DNA of 64,000 bases, taken from the NCBI RefSeq assembly GCF_021290385.1, contig NZ_CP089928.1:976501-1040500 (forward strand), written 5' to 3'. The DNA is from Microbulbifer sp. YPW16. Its GTDB lineage: Bacteria > Pseudomonadota > Gammaproteobacteria > Pseudomonadales > Cellvibrionaceae. Below the pieces are notes generated by a model. It did not search any database, was not told where the DNA came from, and was given only the letters and a program-made list of their open reading frames with translations. A program made the position numbers and the translations under genes. Below, one piece after another: positions 58,565-64,000 of this stretch; positions within the stretch are counted from its first letter, which is position 1; each line of letters opens with the position of its first letter.

Positions 58565-59388
58565 CTATGCGCATTTGCGCTCATATTCAGCTGGACTTAT
58601 GTATCCCAGTGTAGAGTGTCTACGTACCCTGTTGTAAAAAACTTCGATGTATTCGAACACTTCAGCCTTCGCCTGGTTGACACTCTTAAAATGCCCCGCG
58701 TATACCAGCTCTAGCTTCAGGCGGCTGAAGAAGGACTCCATTGCGGCGTTGTCCCCGCAATTGGCCTGGCGGCTCATACTGGATCTGCAGCCATTCGCCA
58801 TTAGCAGGTCCTGATACCCCTGGGCTCGATACTTAACGCCCCGGTCTGAATGCACGATCAAGCCTGGCTTTGACTCCCTATGCTGCAGGGCCATCTTCAA
58901 TGCCCGCTGCGTAAGCTCTTCGGTCATCTGGGTATCCAGCGCCACCCGACGATGCGACGCGAATACAGGTCCATCACCACGGCGAGATACAACCATCTAT
59001 CTCTAACCCAGATGTGGGTAGTGTCGCTGGTCCAGCGACGGTTAGGCCGATTTAGCTGAAAGCATCGCTTCAGCAGGTTGGTAGCAACGTTGACTCTACC
59101 TTCGACGGGCCTGCTATAACGAAAACCTTTTCCATTCCTCGCACGGATATGCTCTTTATGCATAATTCCAGCGATATAGTTGGTTGAGCAAGGGACCCCT
59201 GCATCCAAGAGCTCTCGGGCAATCCTGGGAGCCCCATAGCGAGCCTTGAAGGTCTCAAAGGTATCTATGCCATTTTCTGTAACGCGCTTCCTCCGGATCG
59301 CCCGTGGACTTTCACCTCTACCTAGCCACCGGTAATAACCGGACGCTGACACCTCCAGGCACCGACACATCAAGCGGATCGGGTACAA
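58565..59388 (-). pseudogene. IS3-family transposase OrfB, broken by a one-base deletion
   Basis: OrfB with the rve integrase core. The first part (LMCRCLEVSASGYYRW, RWTSDTTHIWVRDRWLYLAVVMDLYSRRIVGW) breaks off with WRWIPR-stop. The normal continuation ALDTQMTEELTQRALKMA, then GLIVHSDRGVKYRA and the catalytic Glu region NAAMESFFSRLKLELVY, is found in the next frame. The bases TGGCGCTGG should be TGGGCGCTGG, so one G is missing near 58942. The element is therefore probably immobile unless helped in trans. The true start is in the orfA frame through frameshifting. Confidence 0.85.
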
Positions 59389-59417
59389 CCCTGCATGCTC
59401 GCGTATCAGTGCGTACT

Positions 59418-59726
59418 TTACTCTTGGTGGTTCGCAAAGTACGCAGCTGCCTTTTTTAGAAACTCGACCTCCTGGCGCGCTTCATGCAGCTCCTTCCTAA
59501 GGCGGCGCACCTCGGCGCTCTCTTGCTTCGAATAATCTACGCCATCCAGGCTATTGAATTGCTTCTCTGACAGCCGATTGAACTGCCTTCGCCAGTTATA
59601 AATCTGCTGGGCGCTGACACCGAGCTCCCTCGCCACTGAAGCCGTGGTCGCCCCGGGCTTCTCCGCCCGCTTTACTGCCTCTCTGCGAAACTCTTCCGTA
59701 TACGCCTGAGCTCTCTTCTTACCCAT
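59418..59726 (-). CDS. IS3-family OrfA with programmed frameshift site
   Basis: 102 residues. N-terminal helix-turn-helix (YTEEFRREAVKRAEKPGATTASVARELGVSAQQIYNWRRQF) and a C-terminal leucine-zipper-like coiled coil (EVRRLRKELHEARQEVEFLKKAAAYFA). The heptamer A-AAA-AAG at 59457–59451 (minus strand), placed in the correct phase near the end, is the -1 slippage signal of IS3 elements. After slipping, the frame runs on through VKYALIREH into OrfB, giving OrfAB transposase. Confidence 0.9.
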   Translation of the reverse strand: MGKKRAQAYTEEFRREAVKRAEKPGATTASVARELGVSAQQIYNWRRQFNRLSEKQFNSLDGVDYSKQESAEVRRLRKELHEARQEVEFLKKAAAYFANHQE

Positions 59727-59793
59727 GGTACACCTCCGTGTTAGGCCGAAACCTAACTATACAGGGTGTCTACTAAACGTGGGTAAGTCTTCC

Positions 59794-59906
59794 CTATAAC
59801 GCCTTGCTCACCGGCACATACTGCGGAGAGCGTTTTGTGTGAAAATGGAGCGCAGCGAGTAACACAAAAAGTGCGTAGCGTTGGCTGTCGCTCTGCCGCT
59901 GCTTGT
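59794..59906 (-). repeat. attC site of integron cassette 2, interrupted by IS110 copy 1
   Basis: On the minus strand this is the 3' part of an attC; its 5' core GCCTA is found on the far side of the IS at 61091–61095. Removing the IS rejoins CTGCTTGT and TAGGCG into CTGCTTGTTAGGCG, a canonical core. The other end has GTTATAG as crossover core. The middle includes GAGCGTTTTGTGTG and CACAAAAAGTGCG palindromic arms. Immediately to the left is the IS3 element. Confidence 0.78.
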
Positions 59907-59944
59907 ATGGTGAAATCCCCCAAAAATTCGGTAAGGTGAGGCCC

Positions 59945-60039
59945 GTAACTTGCCACGAACAAGTTACCGGCGTGACAGCTCGATGCAGCGCAGGTGCAGG
60001 CGATGCCTAGCCCGTTAACAAGCATGTAGCGTCACGCCG
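59945..60039 (+). ncRNA. Candidate bridge (seeker) RNA of IS110 copy 1
   Basis: In the noncoding left part of the element there is a hairpin GTAACTTG–CCACGAA–CAAGTTAC, followed by a 9-base stem CGGCGTGAC / GTCACGCCG enclosing a 54-base region. Within this region TAACAAGC (60016–60023) is the exact reverse complement of the attC target sequence GCTTGTTA, and GCCTA a few bases before is complementary to the adjoining TAGGC. IS110/IS1111 elements are known to choose targets with such RNAs. Transcription and ends are not shown by sequence. Confidence 0.6.
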
Positions 60040-60090
60040 ACCCTATGTACAACCCGAACAGTCGAATGGGCCTCACGAGCCCGAATGTAG

Positions 60091-61074
<984 letters not shown>

Positions 61075-61103
61075 CATCACAGTCGCTTGTTAGGCGCTGA
61101 CAC

Positions 61104-61511
61104 CTAGATTGATAGGAAAAGATTTGCGTAACCTGAGTTTTCATTTAGAAAATCGCGCAAACCTGCTAAATACTGTCTAAGTGGCTCCTCAGGAGCACCA
61201 TGAAATTCTTCAATTTTTGACCACCTGCCAATTACCCCAGATATTTCGTCGTCATTCAGGCTCTTAATCTTATCCTGGAGCGCTTGAGGGAATGACAAAA
61301 TGAAGGCACCCCCTTCCGGCGGATGAACGGGCTGGAACCCCTTCATTAACTCCTTATACGAAGAGACACCTAGAAGTTCACCAAGTTGAGATAGCGGGAT
61401 CATGTCGACATTTTTTGCGTTAAACCACTTGCCGTACGAATACGGATCGTCACTATTCACAACGTCCTCAGGGTCATTTCCTTCGAGGAATACTACATCT
61501 GAAATTGGCAC
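61104..61511 (-). CDS. Cassette-encoded protein of unknown function
   Basis: 135 residues from a GTG start with AAGGAG 8 bases upstream. Acidic, no signal peptide or membrane helix, so cytoplasmic. NPEDVVNSDDPYSYGKWFNAKN-like N-terminus and FPQALQDKIKSLNDDEISGVIGRWSKIEEF in the middle; the latter is amphipathic and the whole looks like a compact folded protein. I do not recognise a family. The start lies just after an attC crossover core (GTTAGGC at 61532), the normal cassette layout. Confidence 0.72.
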   Translation of the reverse strand: MPISDVVFLEGNDPEDVVNSDDPYSYGKWFNAKNVDMIPLSQLGELLGVSSYKELMKGFQPVHPPEGGAFILSFPQALQDKIKSLNDDEISGVIGRWSKIEEFHGAPEEPLRQYLAGLRDFLNENSGYANLFLSI

Positions 61512-61531
61512 TGATCTCTCCTTTTATGTAC

Positions 61532-61618
61532 GCCTAACGCTTTTGTTCAGCGGCGCCCTGACAAGGGCGTCCGATGGAGGGCCGTAGGCCCGGAATAAAC
61601 TGCAACACCTGGTTAGGC
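61532..61618 (-). repeat. attC site of integron cassette 3 (intact)
   Basis: An 87-base imperfect palindrome with perfect outer cores GCCTAAC and GTTAGGC (both strands). Inner arms GTTCAG and CTGCAAC pair except for one extra base, the extrahelical base that gives attC sites their orientation. Read on the minus strand it follows the stop codon of the gene at 61613, the stop TAA being part of the core. This is the clearest attC of the window. Confidence 0.85.
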
Positions 61619-62080
61619 GCGGCTCAGCGCATCAAGGAAATCCTGCTCTCCATCGGCACCCCACCATGGAACAGAAACTTGTCCTCCGAGTTCACAAAGT
61701 TGGCCTAGGAGGGTGAGAAACGACTGGATCTCGCTTTTGCCCCATGCAGCCCCCATCCGATAGTCGAAGTCGAGGCCATCTTTATAAACAAATACTCCAA
61801 GATCCGGTATTGGAGTGGAAGAACCAGCTATGCCAGCAAGGACAACATGGAATGCCTCTGCGTCACCAGACGCTACAAGCGCGGCGTCCTCATGGCCGAG
61901 AAATGGCTTCTCGATTTTCGAGGTCTTGATCCAGAGATCCCCCCCGTTGGCTGTGACATTTCTAGCACCTCTGTCGTAAAGATGCTTGAAGGCTACTGGA
62001 ACAAGCGATGGTACCGAAAAGCTAACTTGCACCTCCGGAAGCGAGCCATCATCTGTCACGAAGTACTCAGATAGATCCAT
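61613..62080 (-). CDS. Cassette-encoded protein of unknown function
   Basis: 155 residues, acidic, soluble, no signal peptide. Notable are the pattern VPVAFKHLYDRGARNVTANGG, LWIKTSKIEKPFLGHEDAALVASGDAEAFHVV and the aromatic-rich SVPWWGADGEQDFLDALSRA at the end. The alternation of short strands and helices suggests an alpha/beta fold. I recognise no family. The stop TAA overlaps the attC core, and the start lies only a few bases from the next attC, so the cassette has almost no noncoding sequence. Confidence 0.7.
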   Translation of the reverse strand: MDLSEYFVTDDGSLPEVQVSFSVPSLVPVAFKHLYDRGARNVTANGGDLWIKTSKIEKPFLGHEDAALVASGDAEAFHVVLAGIAGSSTPIPDLGVFVYKDGLDFDYRMGAAWGKSEIQSFLTLLGQLCELGGQVSVPWWGADGEQDFLDALSRA

Positions 62081-62085
62081 TTTTC

Positions 62086-62164
62086 GCCTAACGCCAAGCT
62101 TTGGGGCGGCTGGAGCGCAGCGTAAGCCGTCCCAGCCGCGATAGCGGCGACAACAGCGCCTTGT
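62086..62164 (-). repeat. attC site of integron cassette 4, interrupted by IS110 copy 2
   Basis: Crossover core GTTAGGC (minus strand) is at 62092–62086, and the arms GCGGCTGG / CCAGCCGC are clear. The other outer core is on the far side of the IS (63349–63353); rejoining GCGCCTTGT with TAGGTGG restores CTTGTTAGGT. The interruption is at the same point as in the attC at 59794. Confidence 0.8.
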
Positions 62165-62202
62165 ATGGTGAAATCCCCCAAAAATTCGGTAAGGTGAGGC
62201 CC

Positions 62203-62297
62203 GTAACTTGCCACGAACAAGTTACCGGCGTGACAGCTCGATGCAGCGCAGGTGCAGGCGATGCCTAGCCCGTTAACAAGCATGTAGCGTCACGCCG
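62203..62297 (+). ncRNA. Candidate bridge (seeker) RNA of IS110 copy 2
   Basis: Same structure as in copy 1: hairpin GTAACTTG / CAAGTTAC, then the 9-base stem CGGCGTGAC / GTCACGCCG around the guide-like TAACAAGC (62274–62281). At this target, seven of eight guide bases match the pre-insertion attC (CTAACAAGG), compared with eight of eight at copy 1. Confidence 0.6.
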
Positions 62298-62348
62298 ACC
62301 CTATGTACAACCCGAACAGTCGAATGGGCCTCACGAGCCCGAATGTAG

Positions 62349-63332
<984 letters not shown>

Positions 63333-63334
63333 CA

Positions 63335-63637
63335 TCACAGTCGCTTGTTAGGTGGTCGACGGCGGAGTGCAAATAGGGCTGCCGCACATACCAACCACCA
63401 GAAAACTAAGAAGAATGCCAGAAAAAACGATGCACCACTGTAAGAGCTACCAGGGCTAATCGCTAATTCTGGCGATAACGCCGGAAAGCCACTTTGAAGC
63501 AACCATAACGGTGGACCAATAAAAATATCTCTGACATTGTGCCAAATCCCTCCAGCCCCATCCGTGACAAAGCTTATTGCTGCGAATAGCAAAGCTAGGG
63601 TAAGACCTAGTAAGAATGAAAAACTTACTCGCCTCAT
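63335..63637 (-). CDS. Cassette-encoded membrane protein, C-terminus altered by IS insertion
   Basis: 100 residues with a hydrophobic N-terminus (FSFLLGLTLALLFAAISFV) and a second helix (FFLAFFLVFWWLVCAAALFAL) followed by RRRPPNKRL. The last codons and the TGA stop lie within IS110 copy 2. With the IS removed the frame would run through the attC for about 23 further codons to a TAG at its other core. So the present C-terminus is a product of the insertion. No family recognised. Confidence 0.62.
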   Translation of the reverse strand: MRRVSFSFLLGLTLALLFAAISFVTDGAGGIWHNVRDIFIGPPLWLLQSGFPALSPELAISPGSSYSGASFFLAFFLVFWWLVCAAALFALRRRPPNKRL

Positions 63638-63648
63638 GAGCTATAGAC

Positions 63649-63764
63649 ACCTAACGCCGTGCTCAGTAGCGGCTTACTTTATGCGCTTTTTGCGCAAAAA
63701 TAGGAGCATAGCGACCGCGCGAAAAGCGCATAAGTATGACGTCAGCTGCAGCACCTTGTTATGG
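63649..63764 (-). repeat. attC site of integron cassette 5
   Basis: A 116-base imperfect palindrome. On the minus strand the outer cores are CCATAAC and GTTAGGT (GTTRRRY). Inner arms include TATGCGCTTTTTGCGC and GCGCGAAAAGCGCATA. It is clearly related to the attC at 57846 (shared GTCAGCTGCAGC-like end and TATGCGC arms), indicating that attC sites of this array belong to one family with variable middles. Confidence 0.78.
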
Positions 63765-64000
63765 CTGGCACGCCGCATAGTTTGCAATATCTTCCGCATC
63801 TGAAGTTACTACACCCTGCCAGTTATTAAATCTACCACCATACGCGGATGTAGCGTGATAACCCACTTTAGCCTTTTGACCCAGAGGCGATCTTGATTTA
63901 TATATTTCATACACTTGGGCACCCTCTGTAGGTTGGATGGTTACTAATCCAAGTTCCGCACTATCTGGCACAATTAAAACGCCGTCGATCTTAAGCTCAT
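63759..64000 (-). CDS. Cassette-encoded protein, unknown function (5' end outside window)
   Basis: About 80 residues visible, open to the right edge. The visible part starts ELKIDGVLIVPDSAELG and ends VVTSDAEDIANYAACQP, with the TAA stop inside the attC core. SRSPLGQKAKVGYHATSAYGGRF recalls a glycine/serine-rich loop; no family recognised. It is a further cassette of the array, so the array continues beyond the window. Confidence 0.6.
   Translation of the reverse strand, partial: ELKIDGVLIVPDSAELGLVTIQPTEGAQVYEIYKSRSPLGQKAKVGYHATSAYGGRFNNWQGVVTSDAEDIANYAACQP

What the first reader, a model, noticed from the sequence alone, without database searches (positions are those of the whole stretch)
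59945..60039. Possible bridge/seeker RNA with an 8-base match to the attC target
The noncoding left end folds into a hairpin plus a 9-base stem enclosing TAACAAGC, which is complementary to GCTTGTTA of the attC target; GCCTA just before is complementary to the adjacent TAGGC. Copy 1's target matches 8 of 8 and copy 2's 7 of 8. This would explain attC specificity. Caution: the IS right end itself contains GCTTGT, so the match could belong to donor rather than target recognition.
Basis: partly seen in the sequence, partly recalled or inferred. Interest (0 to 1): 0.7.

Follow-up and report, generated by a model that had tools for sequence, protein, structure and literature searches.

The report
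Bridge RNA aiming IS110 at integrons
A jumping DNA element in a marine bacterium carries a small RNA whose two short guide stretches fit the sites where integrons join their gene cassettes, and in its relatives one guide stays fixed while the other changes with the local version of the site.

Summary
The segment is real and is, by sequence evidence, the target-binding loop of an IS110-type bridge RNA. The element (1182 bp, two copies in the window, a third in the genome) has a transposase of the IS621 side, an upstream noncoding region, and sits in attC-like sites. TAACAAG (60016-60022) is the right target guide for core CT plus TGTTA: present in 143 of 154 relatives at TTGTTA sites, in 0 of 18 relatives at other sites, which carry other guides. 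The last C (60023) is a handshake base fitting the element's own right end: complementary in 138 of 152 elements, against 38 of 158 for the target base. The missed left guide is GCAGCGC (59985-59991): this position matches the 7 nt left of the core above shuffles in 66 elements and in 45 further guide-flank pairs (0 of 10,000). Thirty-five hand-picked attC-targeting transposases form one clade apart from IS1111-type enzymes. Bridge RNAs are known, as is attC targeting by IS1111 elements; an IS110-side attC clade with a fixed right and varying left guides was not seen in the papers searched.

The parts
59902..59903 (+). core CT at the left junction of copy 1
   Evidence: the position of the core follows IS621 by analogy
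59904..61085 (+). IS110-type element, copy 1 (1182 bp), from TGTATGG to ACAGTCG
   Evidence: three copies with different flanks
59945..59967 (+). 5' hairpin of the bridge RNA
59968..60039 (+). target-binding loop closed by the 9-bp stem CGGCGTGAC/GTCACGCCG
   Evidence: 12 of the 13 pairs of this helix have changes on both sides among 60 relatives
59985..59991 (+). left target guide GCAGCGC
   Evidence: identity to the 7 nt left of the core: z 7.1 (66 elements), z 7.0 (45 further guide-flank pairs)
   Evidence: 78.0% of its cells paired
60016..60022 (+). right target guide TAACAAG, complementary to CT-TGTTA
   Evidence: 143 of 154 at TTGTTA sites, 0 of 18 at other sites; guides change with target
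60023..60023 (+). handshake base C, complementary to the last base (G) of the IS right end
   Evidence: 138 of 152 elements complementary
60058..60066 (+). left donor guide: ACAGTCG equals the right end, then AA
60085..60095 (+). right donor guide ATGTAGCAAG plus one base, discontinuous complement of CT-TGTAT
   Evidence: read by eye from the sequence, by analogy with IS621; GCA invariant
60112..61074 (+). DEDD transposase, 320 aa
   Evidence: PF01548 2.7e-23 and PF02371 6.4e-18; IS621 2.5e-35
61071..61085 (+). right end, TTGACATCACAGTCG; its TTGACA is the -35 of the predicted circle-junction promoter
61086..61087 (+). core CT at the right junction of copy 1; TGTTAGGC of the attC follows
62162..63343 (+). 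element copy 2; target ACAGCGC-CT-TGTTAGGT

Best explanation
The upstream noncoding region encodes an IS110-type bridge RNA. In the excised circle the joined ends make a promoter (TTGACA-18-TGAAAT) that drives the RNA (inferred). Its target loop carries a left guide (GCAGCGC) for the bottom strand of the variable part of attC, and a right guide (TAACAAG) for the top strand of the CTTGTTA at the conserved end of attC. Its donor loop reads the element's own joined ends (ACAGTCG-CT-TGTAT). The transposase recombines at the CT core, and handshake bases help strands swap (mechanism taken from IS621). Because the right guide fits the part common to these attC sites and the left guide fits the part that differs, lineages keep the first and change the second. 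Insertion splits attC and probably immobilises the cassette (inferred).
For: Structure covariation. Left-guide match to own left flank: 66 elements, 3.65 of 7 against 2.42 shuffled, 0 of 5000; 45 further guide-flank pairs, 4.2 against 2.89, 0 of 10,000; 56 distinct guides each counted once, 3.8 against 2.35, 0 of 10,000; 29 of 103 match at 6 or 7 of 7 against 6.1 expected. TAACAAG in 143 of 154 elements at TTGTTA sites and 0 of 18 at other sites. Handshake base complementary in 138 of 152. Guides change with target in 18 divergent relatives. Sites attC-like: TAACGY 30-130 nt into the left flank in 76 of 134 against 7 of 134 control stretches; median fold z -2.06 against -0.24. Circle-junction promoter score of at least 9 of 12 in 46 of 95 against 4.5% of shuffles. 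Transposase matches IS621 and ISCro4, with D14, E58, D100, D103 and S238 (invariant) aligned to D, E, D, D and S of IS621.
Against: No RNA or transposition data. Many insertions match the left guide poorly (28 of 103 at 2 of 7 or less); copy 1 here matches 4 of 7 (copy 2: 6, third copy: 5). The two left-guide positions next to the core covary weakly. Relatedness among elements inflates the shuffle tests, and some of the 45 share a guide with the first 66. The right-flank search favoured CTTGTTA, and 47 of 217 elements gave no right flank. 11 of 154 elements at TTGTTA sites lack TAACAAG (four of them matched only in the second half of the transposase, the others with changed or lost motifs). 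The donor-loop handshake base showed no clear pairing with the target. 58 of 134 left flanks lack TAACGY.
Confidence: 0.93

Rival explanations
1. TAACAAGC reads the donor (the element's right end contains GCTTGT), not the target.
For: RE-core reads GCTTGT; the last base C tracks the right end.
Against: A separate donor loop with ACAGTCG exists and tracks the right end; TGTTA lies outside the element; relatives with other targets have guides fitting those targets and none keeps TAACAAG.
Confidence: 0.03
2. It is a member of the published IS1111-attC group (ISKpn4, ISPst6, ISPa25).
For: Same kind of target, same DEDD transposase superfamily.
Against: Noncoding region upstream (208 nt) and 11 nt downstream here; in relatives the right-end motif begins 3-41 nt after the stop (leaving out one misassigned hit at 113); longest exact inverted repeat of the ends is 4 nt, as in shuffles; IS4321 20% identical; 35 hand-picked attC transposases group apart from the IS1111-type set; guide order bottom-then-top, as reported for IS110 (PMC11187229).
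Confidence: 0.04
3. The left-guide signal is only shared ancestry: related elements live in related hosts with similar attC sites, without pairing.
For: Elements and hosts are related; 56 guides among 103 elements are not independent.
Against: The match is base identity mainly in one register (all 103: offset 0 z -0.7, offset 1 z 10.9, offset 2 z 3.8; validation set 7.0 at offset 1 and 1.5 at offset 2), holds with each guide counted once (z 8.5), and recurs in guide-flank pairs not used to find it.
Confidence: 0.06

Closest known systems
IS621 and other IS110-type elements with bridge RNA (PMC11208160, PMC11208158; passages read)
   Same: Upstream RNA, two guide loops, bottom-strand left guide 5' of top-strand right guide, CT core, handshake base, promoter at the circle junction; TGTAT/ACAGT ends (the IS621 ends recalled).
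   Different: Target is an integron attC end; right guide pairs 7 nt including the core; right guide fixed across the clade while the left guide varies.
IS1111-attC group, ISKpn4/ISPst6/ISPa25 (PMC11187229: abstract, passages and two sections read; Tetu & Holmes 2008 not held, Post & Hall 2009 seen only as a reference)
   Same: Insert at one end of attC, guided by an RNA matching both target strands.
   Different: Downstream noncoding region, subterminal inverted repeats, reversed guide order, different transposase group.
ISEc21 (IS110) seekRNA (PMC11187229)
   Same: Upstream noncoding region, bottom match before top match, natural retargeting by a few guide changes.
   Different: Target lies in IS3-family transposase genes; transposase only distantly similar.

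Membership tests
IS110-type (IS621-like) bridge RNA element | DEDD transposase with RuvC-like and Transposase_20 domains | tested here: met
IS110-type (IS621-like) bridge RNA element | Longer noncoding region upstream of tnp | tested here: met
IS110-type (IS621-like) bridge RNA element | Structured RNA with target loop and donor loop | tested here: met
   predicted structure only
IS110-type (IS621-like) bridge RNA element | Left guide matches bottom strand, right guide matches top strand, in this order | tested here: met
IS110-type (IS621-like) bridge RNA element | CT core and donor guides matching the joined ends | tested here: met
   left donor guide; right donor guide by eye only; a minority of left junctions lack CT
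IS110-type (IS621-like) bridge RNA element | RNA expressed and bound by the transposase; circular intermediate | not testable with these tools
   needs experiment
IS1111-attC group | Subterminal inverted repeats | tested here: not met
   exact repeats between the first and last 40 nt
IS1111-attC group | Downstream noncoding region | tested here: not met
IS1111-attC group | IS1111-type transposase | tested here: not met
   compared with IS4321 and its relatives, not with ISKpn4 itself
IS1111-attC group | Insertion at one end of attC | tested here: met

The most novel reading that the evidence does not exclude
A clade of IS110-type elements reached integron attC sites independently of the IS1111-attC group and keeps up with attC diversity by splitting the job: one bridge-RNA guide is frozen on the part that these attC sites share, the other is re-written again and again to the host lineage's attC variant (56 distinct left guides seen). 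It would be a large natural experiment in bridge-RNA reprogramming.
Probability: 0.7. Interest if true: 0.68.

Novelty: new variant of a known kind. Interest (0 to 1): 0.57.

Why it matters
It shows how an RNA-guided element can follow a diverse family of recombination sites, suggests that two groups of DEDD elements converged on the same kind of attC end with opposite RNA placement, offers dozens of natural guide variants for learning the pairing and mismatch rules of bridge RNAs, and points to a possible cause of cassette immobilisation in chromosomal integrons.

Tried and rejected
GCCTA as a second guide: rejected (stem). Donor-only reading of TAACAAGC: rejected. IS1111 membership: rejected. 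Offsets 0 and 3 for the left guide gave nothing; offset 2 gave a weaker signal (z 4.1, 3.8 over all, but 1.5 in the validation set). Donor-loop handshake base against the target's last base: inconclusive, the base is mostly G. The full left guide plus CTTGTTA (GCAGCGCCTTGTTA) and a generic attC pattern in the own genome: no match. Simple attC scans of the window and of four other stretches of the genome found few sites, so the idea that the host's commonest attC sets the left guide was not tested. Rfam: no match in 59000-64000 up to E 0.5. Viral contigs gave 2 relatives. The tree script printed that the IS1111-type set was not monophyletic under its forced rooting; I read the tree as unrooted, where that set lies on one side of a long branch. 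In one search one pair of the loop hairpin was mostly unpaired (41 of 60 sequences).

Counts and drops: one search used 77 of 116 transposase loci (39 dropped for lack of a left end, guide pattern or flank), 66 after removing duplicates; 260 hits, 217 distinct elements after 43 duplicates; one search used 109 with guide and left flank, 103 non-redundant. One search used 60 elements no more than 0.93 alike in a string-similarity ratio, all chosen by the motif TAAC[AG][AG]G; of 164 elements at TTGTTA sites the 154 with at least 200 nt upstream were counted. Of the 14 handshake exceptions at least five rest on a misplaced motif (L214, L215, L164, L114, L124); the five T/T exceptions are L103, L112, L183, L115 and L189.

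Full report
What is there. The finding lies in the left part of a 1182-bp insertion sequence present twice in the window (59904-61085 and 62162-63343) and once more in the same genome (C1:472688); the other two copies are 97% identical to the first and the noncoding parts of all three are the same. Flanks give three sites: GCCGCTG-CT-TGTTAGGC, ACAGCGC-CT-TGTTAGGT and GCAGCTT-CT-TGTTATGC. The element begins TGTATGG and ends ACAGTCG between two CT dinucleotides, as I recall for IS621; the exact core is by analogy, since CTTGT is present at both junctions.

Type of element. The 320-aa protein has both IS110 domains and matches IS621 (2.5e-35) and ISCro4 in the PDB. It is 20% identical to IS4321, an IS1111-type enzyme. 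In a tree of 87 sequences (those of the IS110 side picked by hand) the 35 attC-targeting transposases form one clade (support 0.999) on the side of IS621, apart from the IS1111-type set (unrooted reading). The noncoding region is upstream (208 nt; 11 nt downstream) and the ends have no inverted repeat beyond chance. Five IS1111-type loci in the same order (of 30 fetched) carry ATGGACACCC-type inverted repeats, 185-241 nt between stop codon and right end, and a right flank GTTA; they look like the published IS1111-attC group, which was not confirmed by name.

The RNA. 59938-60106 folds better than all 200 shuffles. On 60 relatives a 27-pair structure holds in 93.8% of cells against 74.9% shuffled, with 329 double-changed cells against 89, and falls to 29-45% when partners are slid. 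GCCTA is the 3' arm of a hairpin within it.

Right guide. TAACAAG pairs with CT-TGTTA. Of 217 distinct elements a right flank was found for 170; it reads NTTGTTA in 164 (161 CTTGTTA). The search pattern favoured such flanks, so this number describes the clade and is not a test. Two tests: TAACAAG stands within 160 nt before the gene in 143 of 154 elements at TTGTTA sites and in 0 of 18 divergent relatives at other sites; and in those 18 the longest stretch complementary to the junction averages 7.6 nt in the own upstream region against 5.5 in swapped ones (0 of 2000). That stretch starts 81-127 nt before the gene in 14 of the 18, though in L195 (5 nt) and L144 (6 nt) it is short; in L125, L126, L134 and L141 the longest match lay elsewhere. 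Three of the 18 (L195, L199, L204) are copies from one genome. Examples: TGCAAAAGC for GCTTTTGCA (L127), GGGAGAGC for GCTCTCCC (L027).

The eighth base. The base after TAACAAG is C with right ends in G (68), T with A (67), A with T (3); 14 of 152 are not complementary, at least five of them through a misplaced motif. Against the last target base the same count is 38 of 158. Most of this rests on two large groups (C/G and T/A), so independent changes are few. It is the handshake base described for IS621 (PMC11208158, passages).

Left guide. Eight bases between CGRT and GG vary. The first seven resemble the seven bases left of the core: 66 elements, z 7.1; 45 further guide-flank pairs, z 7.0; all 103, z 10.9; 56 guides counted once, z 8.5. 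The excess lies at -7 to -3 (0.24-0.35) and is small at -2 and -1 (0.06, 0.08). The window's guide GCAGCGC matches its own copies at 4, 6 and 5 of 7 (copy 1, copy 2, third copy).

attC. TAACGY, which in the recalled canonical orientation is the far end of attC read backwards, lies 30-130 nt into the left flank in 76 of 134 insertions against 7 of 134 control stretches 300-400 nt away, and restored sites fold better than base-shuffled ones. CTTGTTA is then the reverse of TAACAAG at the start of attC, just after the stop codon of the minus-strand cassette gene 61104-61511. The genome has two integron integrases over the curated cut-off, neither beside this array.

Donor side. The donor loop holds ACAGTCG, equal to the right end, and ATGTAGCAAG, a broken complement of CT-TGTAT read by eye; in 15 of 18 divergent relatives the donor end (7 or more of 9 bases) recurs 38-85 nt before the gene. 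Joining the ends gives TTGACA-18-TGAAAT here, and a score of 9 or more of 12 in 46 of 95 junctions against 4.5% of shuffles.

What is shown and what is inferred. Shown by sequence comparison: conserved structure, guide-target and guide-donor correspondence, clade and architecture. Inferred: transcription, binding, circular intermediate, recombination chemistry, and the loss of cassette mobility.

Known and new. Bridge RNAs and seekRNAs, and attC targeting by IS1111 elements, are published. In the listings of searches for IS110 with attC, integron, bridge RNA or superintegron, for seekRNA and for IS1111-attC, and in the passages read from eight of the listed papers, I saw no report of an IS110-side attC clade or of a fixed right and varying left guide. 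One paper says 'IS110' in its abstract for ISPa21 while placing it in the IS1111 group (PMC11616780, passages), and one notes IS110 elements in Shewanella integrons but none in attC (PMC9229058, passages). The library is open-licence papers only, the two founding attC papers could not be read, and ISfinder was not searched.

Noticed in passing
window 58565-59726 (-): Three minus-strand ORFs that look like an IS3-family transposase in pieces (by eye, no family search), inside the cassette array.
   Followed up: no
own genome C1:1761003-1761040 (L004): A lone 38-bp match to the right end and target (CACAGTCG-CTTGTTAGGC) without the rest of the element.
   Followed up: no
L015 and L113, left flank: The left flank is itself a right end (CACAGTCG-CT), as expected of tandem insertion; insertion regenerates CT-TGTTA at the right junction.
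   Followed up: no
L016, L071, L265, L017, donor-loop hairpin: An insertion of about 18 nt (GCACCC..GGGCAT) in the donor hairpin recurs in members of two sublineages.
   Followed up: no
L021, L156, L072, L076 and others, left junction: Left core is AT or TT instead of CT in a minority of insertions.
   Followed up: no
own genome C1:20785-21726 and C1:2076920-2077849: Two integron integrases far from the cassette array in the window, which may thus be an array without its own integrase.
   Followed up: partly
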